Shown here piece by piece: positions 892-28,960 of a DNA stretch of 31,741 nt. The stretch spans positions 1 to 31,741 of the IMG/VR virus record IMGVR_UViG_3300023199_000070. One strand, 5' to 3'. The notes under the pieces are model-generated. The model had not been told where the DNA came from. It saw only the letters and a program-made list of their open reading frames with translations, and did no database searches. The position numbers were made by a program, and so were the translations under genes. The DNA comes from a virus. Position 1 is the stretch's first letter, and each line of letters begins with the position of its first letter.

Positions 892-1565
892 GGGGGTCCC
901 GCTGTTGATCCGTCAATAGTGACCGAAATGAAATCCAAGTAATGCGTGCCAGCAGAGTTAAACCCAAAAACACCTGGAAAAACGCCGTCAGCGCCCGAAA
1001 CGCTGCCTGAAAGCGTCCAGCTCGATGGCTCGTTCGTATAACTTCCTTGCCAAATCTTTCCCATCAACTGCCCAGGCTCTCGGCGCAGACGAATGAAATG
1101 CGGGGTCGTCGTGTCAAAGCTCGTAAAACTCAAGTCTTGAGCAACGACGGCTTCGCCCTGATCGTCATCCCGAAGGATCTTGATTTCCCCCGCGCCGCCA
1201 CGAAACGCGAAACGATAATCGATGCGCGCGCTCCCGATCGACGCAAGGGCAACGATATCAGCTTCGTTGTAGGCGGAATTGCTCGACCACTGACGAACAA
1301 GAACCTCCATATTATCTGTCACGCCTGAGAAAGGCTGGGTCCAGAGAATACAACTCCGCCCGCTACGTGCCTGGGTGACTTCCAGCGCGTTCGCCCCATA
1401 GATCGCGGTGGCATTGCTCGCGACATTTAAAGACGCTGCTTCGGTCGCCCAAGCCGCATTCAACCATTGAGACACCGTGACAAAGGGGCTATCGAATCTA
1501 TCCACAATGCTGTAGCCCCCGCCGCCAAGAGAAGAAAAAAGCATCACAGGCCGAACCAGGCTCAC
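888..1565 (-). CDS. Tail-fibre-associated beta-sandwich protein
   Basis: The GTG at 1565 overlaps the stop of the long fibre gene by four bases (GTGA) and is preceded by AAGGGG seven bases upstream, so I prefer it to the longer frame or the ATG at 1544. The 225-residue product is rich in serine, threonine, glycine and aromatic residues and has alternating strand-like patterns (VDRFDSPFVTVSQWLNAAW, then a closing YLDFISVTIDG). That pattern resembles concanavalin or LamG-like jelly-roll domains used for sugar binding. A receptor-binding tip or fibre partner is the likely role, inferred from position directly after the collagen-like fibre. No catalytic motif is visible. Confidence 0.6.
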   Translation of the reverse strand: MSLVRPVMLFSSLGGGGYSIVDRFDSPFVTVSQWLNAAWATEAASLNVASNATAIYGANALEVTQARSGRSCILWTQPFSGVTDNMEVLVRQWSSNSAYNEADIVALASIGSARIDYRFAFRGGAGEIKILRDDDQGEAVVAQDLSFTSFDTTTPHFIRLRREPGQLMGKIWQGSYTNEPSSWTLSGSVSGADGVFPGVFGFNSAGTHYLDFISVTIDGSTAGPP

Positions 1566-3964
1566 GTGAAATCCCCTTGCCCGACGCCATAAAGAAAGCT
1601 TCCGTCCGAGACGAAGGAGAACACATCCACGGCATTGGCATCCGTGCTCACATCGGGCGGCGTGCCTCCCGGCCACAGGAACTGGAACCCCCACGTCACC
1701 GTGCGATTGCCAGATCCGTCCTGCTGCAGGATGAGGGTGTAGGTTCCCCCGACGACCAAATTGCTCGGCGAGATCGAGACATTCCCCGTCAACCGCCAAA
1801 GCGCGACCTGATCGGTGGTCAGGTTCCATGTCACCGAGCCAGATTTGCTTGCAAGCAGCGCCGCCCCGAAATTCTTCTGCCCGGAGAAGGTTTGCGCCGC
1901 CGGGCCTGTATGGATCTGCGCGTCGTTCGTGACGTTGCCAAGCCCAACCTCGCCGGGGGCGTGCGCGTGGCTCGCGGCGGCAAAGTCCCCGGCATCGCTT
2001 GCCGCTGCCGTGCCGAGCGTCGGGAAGTCCGTGATATCAGAAACAGTGTGCGTGTGATCCTCCGCAACATTCACGACCTGTTGCGTCACCGCCTTGAGAA
2101 CCATGCCGGACGACCCGACGCCAACGAGATTGGCCGTGCCGGTGGTGACATCGCCCTGCCGGGCGCGCAGAGTGATGATTTGGCCCGCCGTCAGATCGAA
2201 GGACCAGAAGATCGTCTCGCCGCTGCTAAAAGACTGGGTGTTGCGAACGTAAAGCCCCCGGTTAACGGGGCCAGATTGAACGCCGTCAACCGCGAATTGC
2301 AAAAACGGCCCCGCGCGCGCCGCGCTGGACTCGACGGAGACGGTCGCGCTGACCTCGACCGTCGCATTAACCAGCACCCGGACACCATTGCCGACGACCT
2401 CGAACACCGAGGCGTCGATGTCGACCACATTGCCCGTAAGGGGGATTTCCGTCCAACTCGACGTGTTGAAGTTTGTTGAGGTGTCTGTGTTCAGCACCCG
2501 GCAGAAGGACGCATCGCCCGCCGCGCCGCCGCTCGTTTGCCAATCGGCGGAGCCAAGCTCTGTGTCGATGGCCGAGACGATCTCCGCCCCCGTCTGATCC
2601 GCCGTCGCCCCGTCCTCGACATTGAGCGCCGCCCGCAGAGCGGCGGCGCTCGGTGAGCCCGAGACCCCGGCCACGCTCTGTGTCGCGCTCTGCGCCAGCT
2701 CGCCCTGCGCCGCCGTCGCGAAAGCGCCCACATCCTCCGCCGCCGCCGTGCCCGCATCCGTGATCTCGGCCAGCGTGTGCGTGTGACCGGCCGGCGCCGC
2801 GCCGATGTCGCCCGGCGCGCTCGGCACGGACAGGGCCGCAATCAGCGTGGCTTCGGTAGACGGATCCGCATCGATGAGCGCCGCGATCTCAGCCGCCGTC
2901 TGGTCCGCCGTCGCCCCCGCCTCAATAGCGGCCAGCTTGTCGAAATCGGCCGACGCCATCAGCCCGGCATTGCTCGCATCAGCAAGGGTCAGAACGGCAT
3001 TGGTGCCGGTCGAAGATGAAACCGTGCCCATCGCCGCATCCCAAGCGAGATCGGTCTCACCCGTCTGCCACGTCGTTCCGCCGAGCTCGGTGTTGAGCGC
3101 GGTAACGAGTTCAGTCCCGGTCGGCGTCGAACCGCTGGCGCCCTGCGGGATTGCGATATCGAAGATGGCGGCAGAGCTTGTCCCGGAATTCGTCACCGTC
3201 GCTTGGCTGCCTGCCGCCAATGTGCTCACGGTGCCCACCGCGATGGTGGCAGCTTGGCCGGGCGCGCCATCGACACCATCCGAGCCGGGCTCGCCCTGGG
3301 GGCCCTGAGCGCCCTGCGGCCCCTGCGGGCCAGTCAGATCGCCGCTGTCGACGAAATCATCGGTCAGATCGGTTTTCGAGAACGTAAAGCGCATCGCGCC
3401 GCCCGCGATCGGCGAGCCGCTCACACTCAAAATGCCGACACCGGGCGCGCCATCGGCACCGTCCGCGCCATCGACGCCAGGATCGCCTTGCGGCCCTTGA
3501 ATGCCCTGTGGTCCCTGCGGGCCAGTCAGATCGCCCGATGTCACGCTATCGACTGTCAGATCCTCAAACGTCACGTCGATGCGGATCCGCCCATCACCAA
3601 GATCGACGCCCGAGATGCTGTCGATCCCCACCCCATCCGCACCGTCGCTGCCATCCGCGCCGGGCACGCCTTGCGGGCCCTGAACGCCTTGCGGCCCCTG
3701 AATGCCCTGCGGCCCCTGCGGGCCAGTCAGATCGCCCGATGTCACGCTCTCGACCGTCAGGTCGTCGAGCGCCAGGTCGATGCGGATCCGCCCATCACCA
3801 AGATCGACGCCCGAAATGCTGTCGATCCCAACCCCATCCGCGCCGTCGGCGCCGTCCGCACCATCCGCACCGGACGCGCCCGGCGCCCCCGTCGCGCCGA
3901 CAGCCACCGGAATGTAAAACCCATCCGTGCCGGCGAAAACCGTCTTGATGTCGGGCGCAGGCAT
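1562..3964 (-). CDS. Collagen-like phage tail fibre
   Basis: This 800-residue protein begins with a short attachment stretch. It then has four collagen-like Gly-X-Y runs (about residues 23-43, 81-111, 148-175 and 212-236), made of GPQGPQG and GADGADG triplets. They are separated by three copies of a 36-residue module (45-80, 112-147, 176-211) starting VGIDSISG; the third is diverged. Residues about 240-480 contain alanine-rich helical segments with HTHT motifs (AGHTHTLAEITDAGTA), common in trimeric fibres. The C-terminal half is beta-rich. Collagen-like triple helices trimerise phage fibres that bind the host surface. It overlaps the genes on both sides by one to four bases. Confidence 0.85.
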   Translation of the reverse strand: MPAPDIKTVFAGTDGFYIPVAVGATGAPGASGADGADGADGADGVGIDSISGVDLGDGRIRIDLALDDLTVESVTSGDLTGPQGPQGIQGPQGVQGPQGVPGADGSDGADGVGIDSISGVDLGDGRIRIDVTFEDLTVDSVTSGDLTGPQGPQGIQGPQGDPGVDGADGADGAPGVGILSVSGSPIAGGAMRFTFSKTDLTDDFVDSGDLTGPQGPQGAQGPQGEPGSDGVDGAPGQAATIAVGTVSTLAAGSQATVTNSGTSSAAIFDIAIPQGASGSTPTGTELVTALNTELGGTTWQTGETDLAWDAAMGTVSSSTGTNAVLTLADASNAGLMASADFDKLAAIEAGATADQTAAEIAALIDADPSTEATLIAALSVPSAPGDIGAAPAGHTHTLAEITDAGTAAAEDVGAFATAAQGELAQSATQSVAGVSGSPSAAALRAALNVEDGATADQTGAEIVSAIDTELGSADWQTSGGAAGDASFCRVLNTDTSTNFNTSSWTEIPLTGNVVDIDASVFEVVGNGVRVLVNATVEVSATVSVESSAARAGPFLQFAVDGVQSGPVNRGLYVRNTQSFSSGETIFWSFDLTAGQIITLRARQGDVTTGTANLVGVGSSGMVLKAVTQQVVNVAEDHTHTVSDITDFPTLGTAAASDAGDFAAASHAHAPGEVGLGNVTNDAQIHTGPAAQTFSGQKNFGAALLASKSGSVTWNLTTDQVALWRLTGNVSISPSNLVVGGTYTLILQQDGSGNRTVTWGFQFLWPGGTPPDVSTDANAVDVFSFVSDGSFLYGVGQGDFT
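3253..3898 (-). repeat. Alternating collagen-like and 36-residue repeats inside the tail fibre
   Basis: The DNA alternates GGNCC-rich collagen codons with a 108-bp module repeated at periods of about 201 and 192 bp. The first two modules are nearly identical, the third diverged. Such repeats let fibre length change by unequal recombination. Confidence 0.8.
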
Positions 3965-4293: not shown

Positions 4294-4823
4294 TGCCCCG
4301 CCTCCGCCGCCCAAGCCGCGTCGAGATCGGCGAAGGTCTTCAGCGCCCCAGCCCGGACGCGGACCAAAACCGCGCGCTCAGCTGCATAAGCCATTTGAAC
4401 ATGGTTCGCCGCAGCCGCCACGATGGCCTCGAGATCGGCGGCGGTGATGTCGTGAAAGACGCCCCCGCCCTTAAAGGAAATCGGCTCCAGGATAAGACCA
4501 GCGGCCACCATCTCCCGCAGGCCGAGAAGCGTCGAGATGTCCTCGGGCCGCGTGTCGACCTGAACGCCCGAAACCTCGACGCCAGCCCAAATCCGCGCCT
4601 GGCGCAGTTGGCGCAGGCGCTCGGTCAAATCGGCCTCGGTCGGCTCAAGCTCGAATGGCACAGCCGACCCAGCCTCGATCCGATGCGTGCGCGGGCGCAC
4701 ATCTTGAGGCACTTCAAGCCAGTCATGCCCCGCGGGCGTGTTCCCGACCAAGAGGTTTGCGGGACCGGTGATGACCTTTCGGATCACCCCGTCCTGAGGA
4801 GTGTAGATCGCATATCTCGGCAT
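4290..4823 (-). CDS. DUF4376-like tail-fibre assembly protein
   Basis: This 177-residue protein opens with MPRYAIYTPQDGVIRKVITG, like the N-terminus of tail-fibre assembly proteins, then has a helical middle (LTERLRQLRQARIWAGVEVSG) and a C-terminal segment ISTLLGLREMVAAG with HDITAADLEAIVAA. That second half matches the DUF4376 pattern, in which an ITAADL segment is followed by a terminal helix. The ATG lies only three bases after the stop of the central tail protein. A chaperone for the adjacent fibre is the likely role. It shares the domain style with the 247-891 gene but little direct sequence. Confidence 0.65.
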   Translation of the reverse strand: MPRYAIYTPQDGVIRKVITGPANLLVGNTPAGHDWLEVPQDVRPRTHRIEAGSAVPFELEPTEADLTERLRQLRQARIWAGVEVSGVQVDTRPEDISTLLGLREMVAAGLILEPISFKGGGVFHDITAADLEAIVAAAANHVQMAYAAERAVLVRVRAGALKTFADLDAAWAAEAGQ

Positions 4824-27312: not shown

Positions 27313-27789
27313 ATGACACCAGAACAGATCGGCGAGGCGCTCAAAGAGCTTGAGCACCCAGACGGCACGCTGCTGCCGAAGGATGTGATCGAGGCCGCGA
27401 GAAGCCCGCAGCACATTCTGCACGACTATTTCGAATGGGATGACGCGCGCGCCGGGCATCTTCACCGGATCGACCAGGCCCGCGGGCTCATCAAGCGCTA
27501 CCGCGTCACGGTCGAGACCTCCAAGCGGCTCTATCAGATCCCGCGATACTTGCGCGACCCAGGGCGCCATGGCGGCGATGCCGGATATCGGCGCGCCGAT
27601 GCGCTGTCGGCCCCCGATCAGCGCAGCGCCCTTGTCGGCGAGCTTCGCCGCCTTGGCGGGCTTCTCGACCGCACGGCCGGCGCCGCCGCGGCGCTCGGCT
27701 TCGCCGATCACGCCGAGGCCATCGAGGCCATGGCCAACAGCGCCCGCGAGGCGGCCGCAACGCTCACCCCCACCCTGACCACAGCCTGA
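27313..27789 (+). CDS. Early phage protein, unknown
   Basis: A 158-residue protein starting MTPEQIGEALKELEHPDG. The first half has LLPKDVIEAARSPQHILHDYF and WDDARAGHLHRIDQARGLIKRYRVTV, and the second half is helical and alanine-rich with a small RLGGLLDRT segment. It is the first gene behind the operator cluster, so it is probably repressor-controlled. A family is not recognised. The gene at 27802 follows after 12 bases and is likely co-transcribed. Confidence 0.7.
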   Translation: MTPEQIGEALKELEHPDGTLLPKDVIEAARSPQHILHDYFEWDDARAGHLHRIDQARGLIKRYRVTVETSKRLYQIPRYLRDPGRHGGDAGYRRADALSAPDQRSALVGELRRLGGLLDRTAGAAAALGFADHAEAIEAMANSAREAAATLTPTLTTA

Positions 27790-27801: not shown

Positions 27802-28605
27802 ATGACAACGACCAAAGTGAAATCCGAGAATGCCGCGATCGAGGTGATGGCTTTTCGCGAGGGACGCGCGCGCTACCACATCGTGGGAAAGACCCCGCTC
27901 ATCTTCAACCGGATGACCGAGAAGGCGAAGCGGCATCTCCTGCTGCCCTCGGGCCGCAAGACGGCGGCCGAGAAGAACTCGGCGCCGAAGCATGACGTTT
28001 ACGCCGAGTTTCGCGAATCTCCCTATGCGCATCGCGAGCGCGCCGACACCGAGACGCTGCTCTACATGCCGCCCGTGGCCCTCAAAAAGGCCATCGCCGC
28101 GGCGGCGATCGACATGCCGGGCACAGCCAAGCGCGCGGTCATCCAGCGCATGATCCGCATCGCGGACCAGCATGTCTCCGTCTTTGGGGTGCCGGAGATA
28201 CTGATCTCAGTCGTCCGAACGGCAGATATGGCGAAAACGCCCGACATCCGCTCCCGCGCGATCCTGCGCGAATGGACGGCGAGCTTCACAATCGATTTCC
28301 CCGAGCCCCAGCTCACCGCCAGCACCATCGCTCAGCTTGTGATCGGCGCGGGGCGCTATTACGGCATCGGCGACTGGCGCCAGGAAAAAGGCTCGGGCGA
28401 TTTCGGTCTGTTCGATCTGGTGGACGAGGACGACGCCACCATGGCGCGCATCCGGGCGGAAGGCGGCCGTGCTGCGCAAGTGGCGGCGATGGCGAACCCC
28501 GCCCTCTTCGATGACGACACGGCGGAGATCCTCTCTTGGTACGAAAGCGAGGCGGCCAAAAGGTTCCCGCAATTGATCGAGCCGCGGGCCATCGCGGCGG
28601 AGTGA
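27802..28605 (+). CDS. Unknown 267-aa early protein with GIGDWRQEKGSGDFG motif
   Basis: A GGAGAGAC element lies before the ATG at 27802. The protein has TPLIFNRMTEKAKRHLLLPS, a conserved-looking ESPYAHRE, then MPPVALKKAIAAAAIDMPG, VPEILISVVRTADMAKTPDI, an ILREWTASFTIDFPEPQLT strand and finally GAGRYYGIGDWRQEKGSGDFG. The glycine-rich loop after a strand resembles the loop of RAMP-type (Cas7/Csm-like) folds, as does the general strand-helix pattern, but similarity to any family is only an impression. I recall uncharacterised phage proteins with the same block. Function unknown. Confidence 0.7.
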   Translation: MTTTKVKSENAAIEVMAFREGRARYHIVGKTPLIFNRMTEKAKRHLLLPSGRKTAAEKNSAPKHDVYAEFRESPYAHRERADTETLLYMPPVALKKAIAAAAIDMPGTAKRAVIQRMIRIADQHVSVFGVPEILISVVRTADMAKTPDIRSRAILREWTASFTIDFPEPQLTASTIAQLVIGAGRYYGIGDWRQEKGSGDFGLFDLVDEDDATMARIRAEGGRAAQVAAMANPALFDDDTAEILSWYESEAAKRFPQLIEPRAIAAE

Positions 28606-28662
28606 TCGACGGTGCCGGGCGCGGGCGCCCGCGCCCGGAAGGCCCCCAATGGGGCATGTCAA

Positions 28663-28960
28663 GGCGGTTATGGCGGGGCCCGGCGCGGCTTGGCAAGGCT
28701 CGGCGGTTGTGGCGTGGCCAGGCCAGGCTGGGCACGGCTAGGCTCGGCACGGCGGGGCGAGGCGGTTACGGCACGGCCGGGCGAGGCCAGGCTGGGCTAG
28801 GCTCGGCACGGCGGGGCGAGGCGGTTATGGCACGGCAAGGCGAGGCGAGGCGAGGCGAGGCGAGGCGGGGCCTGGCAAGGCTCGGCACGGCTCGGCGGTT
28901 GTGGCGTGGCCTGGCTGGGCCCGGCTGGGCTCGGCGGGGCGAGGCGAGGCGGTTGTGGTC
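28663..28960. repeat. Tract of 5-bp GGCNN-type repeats with six GGCGGTT anchors
   Basis: A G-rich tract made of 5-bp units on the GGCNN pattern (GGCAA, GGCTC, GGCAC, GGCGA). Six copies of GGCGGTT(A/G)YGG start at 28663, 28702, 28761, 28820, 28894 and 28948, at intervals of 39, 59, 59, 74 and 54 bp, each one less than a multiple of five. It fills the gap 28606-29021 with no convincing gene; the open frame across it is arginine- and glycine-rich by composition. Confidence 0.85.

What the first reader, a model, noticed from the sequence alone, without database searches (positions are those of the whole stretch)
28663..28960. Six-anchor pentanucleotide repeat tract in a prophage
The tract consists of GGCNN units with anchors GGCGGTT(A/G)YGG whose intervals are all one less than a multiple of five, so each anchor shifts the register by one base. 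This is a hierarchical repeat and not just low complexity. It has no convincing gene. Possible roles: recombination hot spot, structured RNA, protein binding array, or expansion by slippage.
Basis: seen in the sequence. Interest (0 to 1): 0.7.

Follow-up and report, generated by a model that had tools for sequence, protein, structure and literature searches.

The report
Phage-encoded VIPR guide-RNA repeat array
The odd five-letter repeat in this bacterial virus is almost certainly an array of guide RNAs for VIPR, a recently described CRISPR-like system that phages use to switch off rival phages, so the feature is real but the kind of system was already reported in 2026.

Summary
Six GGCGGTT(A/G)Y anchors lie at 28663-28948, 39, 59, 59, 74 and 54 bp apart, each 5n-1, separated by uninterrupted GGCNN pentamers. 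The tract is a vrRNA guide array of a VIPR system (preprint PMC13142463).

The gene just upstream (27802-28605) is the Vipr protein. Its only PDB sequence match is "SUSP1 Vipr protein" (E 1.3e-4; profile E 7e-10). It shares PHROG 4652 with SUSP1 Vipr, and its predicted fold matches only Class 1 CRISPR RAMPs among the 50 best. Before it lies a conserved accessory gene (27313-27789).

Of 123 related loci, 114 carry a pentamer array on the gene strand against 1 on the other strand, and 110 carry the accessory gene. The 5n-1 anchor spacing recurs across the family. The window holds five guides of 7, 11, 11, 14 and 10 units.

Inferred, not shown here: transcription, the 1-nt-skip DNA reading, and repression of rival phages. 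No convincing target was found. New member of a known kind.

The parts
27313..27789 (+). vap-type accessory gene (158 aa, PHROG 15946, unknown function)
   Evidence: phrog_15946 E 7e-15; homologue beside Vipr in 110 of 123 loci; AF2 model pLDDT 92.8, helices plus a short beta part, no PDB match; not related to SUSP1 vap1 by profile comparison or PHROG
27802..28605 (+). vipr gene: RAMP/Cas7-like protein, 267 aa (PHROG 4652)
   Evidence: phmmer to PDB 36pp_D 'SUSP1 Vipr protein' E 1.3e-4; profile E 7.1e-10; BLASTP to the SUSP1 gene E 8e-10; AF2 model pLDDT 84, pTM 0.81; top 50 fold matches all Class 1 CRISPR RAMPs, Z up to 8.9
28615..28638 (+). perfect GC hairpin just after the vipr stop codon (terminator or leader; role unproven)
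   Evidence: fold
28642..28662 (+). leader of the array: small hairpin 28642-28655 then ATGTCAA; a hairpin followed by GGTCAAGG or GGTCACGG precedes the first anchor in many relatives
28663..28960 (+). vrRNA array: 6 anchors GGCG+GTTNN and 5 guides of GGCNN units
   Evidence: family-wide grammar
28667..28701 (+). guide 1, 7 units: AT GG CC GC TT AA TC
   Evidence: unit parse
28706..28760 (+). guide 2, 11 units: GT GT CA CA TG AC TA TC AC GG GA
28765..28819 (+). guide 3, 11 units: AC AC CG GA CA TG TA TC AC GG GA; its last five units repeat those of guide 2 (59-bp duplication)
28824..28893 (+). guide 4, 14 units: AT AC AA GA GA GA GA GA GG CT AA TC AC TC
28898..28947 (+). guide 5, 10 units: GT GT CT TG CC TG TC GG GA GA

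Best explanation
The tract is a guide-RNA (vrRNA) array of a VIPR system in the lysogeny region of a temperate phage, between repressor and integrase. It would be transcribed on the + strand. Each GGCNN (or GTTNN) unit of the RNA would be gripped by one Vipr (RAMP) subunit through GGY, leaving the two N bases free. The NN pairs of one guide would together read a DNA target in the pattern NN-skip1-NN, so that the complex sits on a rival phage's or prophage's gene and blocks its transcription, helped by the accessory protein. The GGCG+GTTNN anchors would mark the boundaries between guides, doing the job of a tail or repeat: six anchors enclose five guides. SHOWN here: sequence grammar, gene neighbourhood, homology and predicted fold of Vipr, family-wide association and strand bias, family-wide anchor spacing. 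TAKEN from the preprint on other VIPR types: transcription, RNP formation, 1-nt skip, repression. INFERRED: that this copy works the same way, and the role of the anchors.
For: Upstream protein matches SUSP1 Vipr in the PDB by sequence and by PHROG 4652, and RAMP folds by structure. Of 123 loci of this family 114 carry a run of 12 or more pentamer units on the gene strand, against 1 on the opposite strand, and 110 the accessory gene. The unit is G-[G/T]-Y-N-N with positions 4 and 5 near zero bits in 2591 proteobacterial-type and 1658 actinophage units, as in the published GGY/NN rule. The array lies before, between or after the two genes in different phages, but on their strand. Anchor intervals are 4 mod 5 in 294 of 377 (GGCGGTY) and 217 of 318 (GGCAGGY) cases; the opposite strands give 2 and 1 intervals in all. 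Guide lengths of 7-14 units sit close to the published 9-16. NN letters show no selection for RNA self-pairing.
Against: No convincing target: exact scans of 2.9 million viral contigs with guide 2, 3, 4 and 5 patterns gave 0, 0, 0 and 1 hit; the single hit fits chance and its skip base is not at the wobble position. In 295 genomes of one Rhodobacterales-type family, up to 3 mismatches gave 1 hit against 0 control (guide 3) and 1 against 1 (guide 2); guide 5 in 120 genomes, up to 2 mismatches, gave 1 against 0. No separate structured 3' tail as in SUSP1 was recognised. The accessory gene is not related to SUSP1 vap1. GGCGA x5 in guide 4 looks like slippage and would make a poor guide. NN composition fits codon positions 1-2 better than 2-3 or 3-1, but no better than independent bases.
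Confidence: 0.92

Rival explanations
1. DNA-level binding array: the pentamers are a double-stranded DNA site for Vipr or the accessory protein (operator, partition site or replication origin), with no guide function.
For: The tract lies in the lysogeny region next to repressor and integrase; anchors are conserved and regularly phased.
Against: Positions 4 and 5 of the unit are free to vary completely, the array is on the strand of the genes, and the linked protein is a RAMP whose tested relatives bind such RNA.
Confidence: 0.04
2. Degenerate array: a genuine VIPR locus whose array is decaying by duplication and slippage and no longer aims at anything.
For: 59-bp duplication shared by guides 2 and 3, five identical GGCGA units in guide 4, a short guide 1, and no target found.
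Against: All 54 GGC triplets are intact over 300 bp, and five of five intervals keep the 5n-1 rule, which a decaying tract would lose. Targets may simply not be in the collections searched.
Confidence: 0.15
3. Simple-sequence expansion by slippage or an assembly artefact, without function.
For: Pentamer runs are typical of slippage; TRF finds periods 5, 10, 15, 39 and 59.
Against: Same grammar beside the same gene family in 114 of 123 loci from many samples and sequenced isolates, with hypervariable NN rather than identical units.
Confidence: 0.01
4. A coding repeat: the open frame through the tract is a repetitive protein (as annotated in phages Donkeykong gp48 and UmaThurman gp40).
For: Open frames cross the tract on both strands, and two relatives are annotated so.
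Against: Anchors shift the frame by intervals that are not multiples of 3 (59, 59, 74); close relatives such as Quico carry the same kind of tract with no gene annotated.
Confidence: 0.01

Closest known systems
VIPR of Escherichia phage SUSP1 (type II VIPR; PMC13142463, PDB 36pp)
   Same: Vipr/RAMP gene of PHROG 4652, an accessory gene next to it, flanking non-coding GGY/NN tandem pentamers on the gene strand, phage-encoded
   Different: SUSP1 has separate vrRNAs, each with a structured 3' tail; here guides are packed head to tail with only GGCG+GTTNN between them. The accessory gene belongs to another family (PHROG 15946, not 5926). Vipr is longer (267 against 195 aa).
'Staggered arrays with overlapping vrRNAs' named in PMC13142463 (its fig. 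S18, not readable here)
   Same: Compact array without long spacers between guides; the name fits the 1-base register shifts
   Different: Cannot be compared in detail: the supplement was not available, and the main text does not mention Mycobacterium or Rhodobacter
Arrays in cluster F mycobacteriophages (Donkeykong, Quico, Brocalys) and Gordonia phages ODay and UmaThurman
   Same: Same two gene families and GGYNN arrays with register-shifting 4-mers
   Different: The separator is GGCA before GGCNN instead of GGCG before GTTNN, and gene order differs
Class 1 CRISPR-Cas (Csm3, Cas7-11, type VII Cas7)
   Same: RAMP fold of the protein; several guides in one array separated by a constant element
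   Different: No long identical repeats, no cas genes recognised in the window; guide information lies in two of every five bases

Membership tests
VIPR system | Vipr protein: RAMP homologue of the Vipr lineage | tested here: met
   PDB 36pp_D 'SUSP1 Vipr protein' is the only sequence hit (profile E 7.1e-10); PHROG 4652 shared with SUSP1 Vipr; RAMP fold, Z up to 8.9
VIPR system | Non-coding tandem repeats of GGY alternating with hypervariable NN, about 9-16 units per guide | tested here: met
   Five guides of 7, 11, 11, 14 and 10 units; family positions 4-5 carry 0.02-0.08 bits. Guide 1 is shorter than the published range.
VIPR system | Minimal locus with one vap accessory gene next to vipr | tested here: met
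   Gene 27313-27789 adjoins vipr; homologue present in 110 of 123 loci. That it acts as a Vap is inferred.
VIPR system | vrRNA is transcribed and bound by Vipr | not testable with these tools
   Needs RNA-seq and pull-down
VIPR system | Guides match a DNA target under the 1-nt skip rule | tested here: inconclusive
   No match above chance; the true rivals of this phage may not be in the collections
VIPR type II (SUSP1 / P. fulva) | Separate vrRNAs, each ending in a conserved structured 3' tail | tested here: not met
   No tail between guides, only GGCG+GTTNN; the SUSP1 tails are plain
VIPR type II (SUSP1 / P. fulva) | vap1 accessory gene | tested here: not met
   PHROG 15946 here against 5926 in SUSP1; profile comparison gives no match
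CRISPR-Cas | Array of identical direct repeats with unique contiguous spacers | tested here: not met
   Constant element is 7-9 bp only; guides are themselves GGCNN repeats
CRISPR-Cas | cas genes (Cas1 adaptation, effector set) | tested here: not met
   None among the window proteins scanned with Pfam and PHROGs (the small ORFs were not all scanned); PADLOC gives only a marginal Cas5/6-like match for Vipr, E 0.0095

The most novel reading that the evidence does not exclude
The register-shifting 4-mer (GGCG before GTTNN in proteobacterial phages, GGCA before GGCNN in actinophages) is a conserved boundary signal that acts like a CRISPR repeat: it punctuates a continuous VIPR transcript into guides, and whole guide-plus-boundary blocks (59 bp here) are duplicated and recombined, so the array gains and reshuffles guides without any Cas1-like integrase.
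Probability: 0.35. Interest if true: 0.75.

Novelty: new member of a known kind. Interest (0 to 1): 0.55.

Why it matters
It assigns a likely function to a strange repeat that recurs in many phages, and to two gene families that PHROGs still lists as unknown (4652 and 15946). It places compact VIPR arrays in well-studied laboratory phages (cluster F mycobacteriophages; Gordonia phages), where the guide boundaries and the skip rule can be tested with existing genetics. If the 1-base register shifts are guide boundaries, they give a sequence rule for cutting compact arrays into guides and so for predicting which rival phages are aimed at.

Tried and rejected
(1) RNA-structure explanation: z -3.7 on + and +2.9 on - vanished when GGC was kept and NN permuted. 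(2) Rfam: only a tRNA in the window. (3) Target search: three of the four viral-contig guide scans empty, one chance-level hit; genome scans at control level; the G023 hit is not in a recognisable phage gene. A mycobacteriophage guide also gave none. (4) A skip-rule test among the loci themselves showed no difference between skips 0-3. (5) NN composition as a codon 1-2 signal: better than 2-3 and 3-1 but equal to independent bases, so not used as evidence. (6) Relating the accessory gene to SUSP1 vap1: no match. PDB fold search with its model found only generic helical hairpins, so no DNA-binding fold is claimed. (7) Assigning one of the seven published VIPR types: not possible without the supplement. 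(8) A first genome scan with the single window protein found no relatives; the profile did.

Full report
CHECK OF THE OBSERVATION. The tract is as described. Anchors GGCGGTT(A/G)YGG start at 28663, 28702, 28761, 28820, 28894 and 28948; the intervals 39, 59, 59, 74 and 54 are all 5n-1. Every unit between them is GGCNN: runs of 7, 11, 11, 14 and 10 units, found nowhere else on either strand of the 31.7 kb. The 300 bp hold 54 GGC, 48 followed by GGC five bases later; 2000 first-order Markov simulations gave at most 11. The anchor is best parsed as a 4-mer GGCG plus a pentamer GTTNN, so it is the 4-mer that shifts the register.

WHERE IT LIES. The window is an IMG/VR virus record with terminase, portal, head protease, major head protein, tape measure, tail fibre, primase, a repressor and an integrase next to a tRNA-Ser. 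The tract sits between repressor and integrase, just after two co-directional genes: B (27313-27789, PHROG 15946) and A (27802-28605, PHROG 4652), both of unknown function in PHROGs and with no Pfam match. The tRNA-Ser matches one genome of the Pararhodobacter order at 99% over 88 bp, which suggests, but does not prove, a Rhodobacterales host.

RELATIVES. BLASTN of the tract alone hit 27 cluster F mycobacteriophage records (genus Cheoctovirus in the records seen; that this is cluster F is from my own knowledge). In Donkeykong, Quico and Brocalys the GGCNN tract lies directly before a homologue of A, which is followed by a homologue of B. In Gordonia phages ODay and UmaThurman, and in one IMG/VR contig, the order is A - tract - B. 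The module A + B + tract is therefore conserved while its order is not. Scans of viral contigs brought in 117 further loci. Over 123 loci (window, these, and five annotated phages; not all independent), 114 have a run of at least 12 pentamer units on the strand of A, 1 on the opposite strand, and 110 have B. Several of the nine without a run have the flank cut off by the contig end (for example L024, L084, L103), and others, such as L015, L022 and L026, still show a period-5 signal.

GRAMMAR. In the family the unit is G-[G/T]-Y-N-N; positions 4 and 5 carry 0.02-0.08 bits (G at position 1 and Y at position 3 were imposed by the search pattern, positions 2, 4 and 5 were free). Some relatives use GTTNN units almost throughout yet keep GGCGGTT or GTCGGTT as the anchor (L064, L066, L081). 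The actinophage separator is GGCA before GGCNN. A hairpin followed by GGTCAAGG or GGTCACGG often precedes the first anchor; the window has a hairpin at 28642-28655 and then GTCAAGG.

IDENTITY. A literature search on RAMP-like phage repeats found preprint PMC13142463. It describes VIPR: a phage-encoded RAMP protein (Vipr), an accessory gene (vap), and vrRNAs made of 9-16 YNNGG repeats in which GGY alternates with NN. The NN pairs read double-stranded DNA with one skipped base between them; the complex represses transcription and acts on rival phages. Protein A meets the Vipr criterion in four ways. Its only sequence match in the PDB is 36pp_D 'SUSP1 Vipr protein' (single sequence E 1.3e-4; profile E 7.1e-10). 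BLASTP to the SUSP1 gene gives E 8e-10 for that one comparison. SUSP1 Vipr belongs to the same PHROG. An AlphaFold2 model (pLDDT 84, pTM 0.81) matches Csm3, Cas7-11, type VII Cas7 and other Class 1 RAMPs in all of the 50 best rows. The SUSP1 locus, read directly, shows the published layout with GGY/NN runs and a constant tail after each.

WHAT DIFFERS. The window is not a type II VIPR: it lacks the per-guide structured tail, and its accessory gene belongs to another family (PHROG 15946 against 5926; no profile match). The preprint names 'staggered arrays with overlapping vrRNAs' among other types, which probably covers this layout, but its supplement could not be read.

MECHANISM. Shown here: grammar, neighbourhood, homology, predicted fold, strand bias and family-wide spacing. 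Taken from the preprint for other types: transcription, RNP formation, the 1-nt skip and repression. Inferred: that this copy works alike, and that GGCG+GTTNN marks guide boundaries (six anchors enclose five guides). RNA folding does not explain the tract: the excess stability disappears when GGC is kept and NN is permuted (z -1.0 and +0.4). The array shows signs of growth by duplication: a 59-bp block is repeated at 92%, so guides 2 and 3 end in the same five units.

TARGETS. No guide could be assigned. Exact 18-base patterns of guides 2, 3, 4 and 5 gave 0, 0, 0 and 1 hits in viral contigs, about what chance predicts; the single hit lies in a gene of a 124-kb contig with the skip base at codon position 2. 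Genome scans in one Rhodobacterales-type family stayed at control level. This leaves the function of these particular guides open.

VERDICT. A real and orderly feature, now explained by a system first posted in April 2026. It is a new member with a compact array layout, not a new kind.

Noticed in passing
L007:2903-3289 (Donkeykong gp48) and L010:3583-3906 (UmaThurman gp40): Annotated 'hypothetical proteins' that are open frames running across the pentamer array; very likely spurious gene calls.
   Followed up: partly
L051, L062, L064, L066, L081 (downstream of the Vipr homologue): AT-rich phages whose arrays use GTTNN units almost throughout while the anchors stay GGCGGTT or GTCGGTT: the anchor is more conserved than the unit.
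   Followed up: partly
L120 (minus strand): The only locus of 123 with a 12+ unit run on the strand opposite to the Vipr gene (14 units).
   Followed up: no
28615-28638: Perfect 10-bp GC hairpin directly after the vipr stop codon, with no run of T after it.
   Followed up: no
3484-3859: 201-bp tandem duplication (90% identity) inside a collagen-like tail fibre gene (1562-3964).
   Followed up: no
4306-4401 (minus): ARAGORN calls a tRNA-Gln inside structural genes; Rfam does not support it, probably false.
   Followed up: no
L132 (SUSP1) and L133 (Pseudomonas phage LESphi2): LESphi2 carries a SUSP1-like VIPR locus: GGY/NN runs, each ending in a GGCAAGGGCTG-like constant tail, before the Vipr gene.
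   Followed up: partly
NZ_CP040759.1 2761-3522 and NZ_CP136687.1 15482-16189: Vipr homologues on Paracoccus and Sulfitobacter plasmids (41% identity).
   Followed up: no
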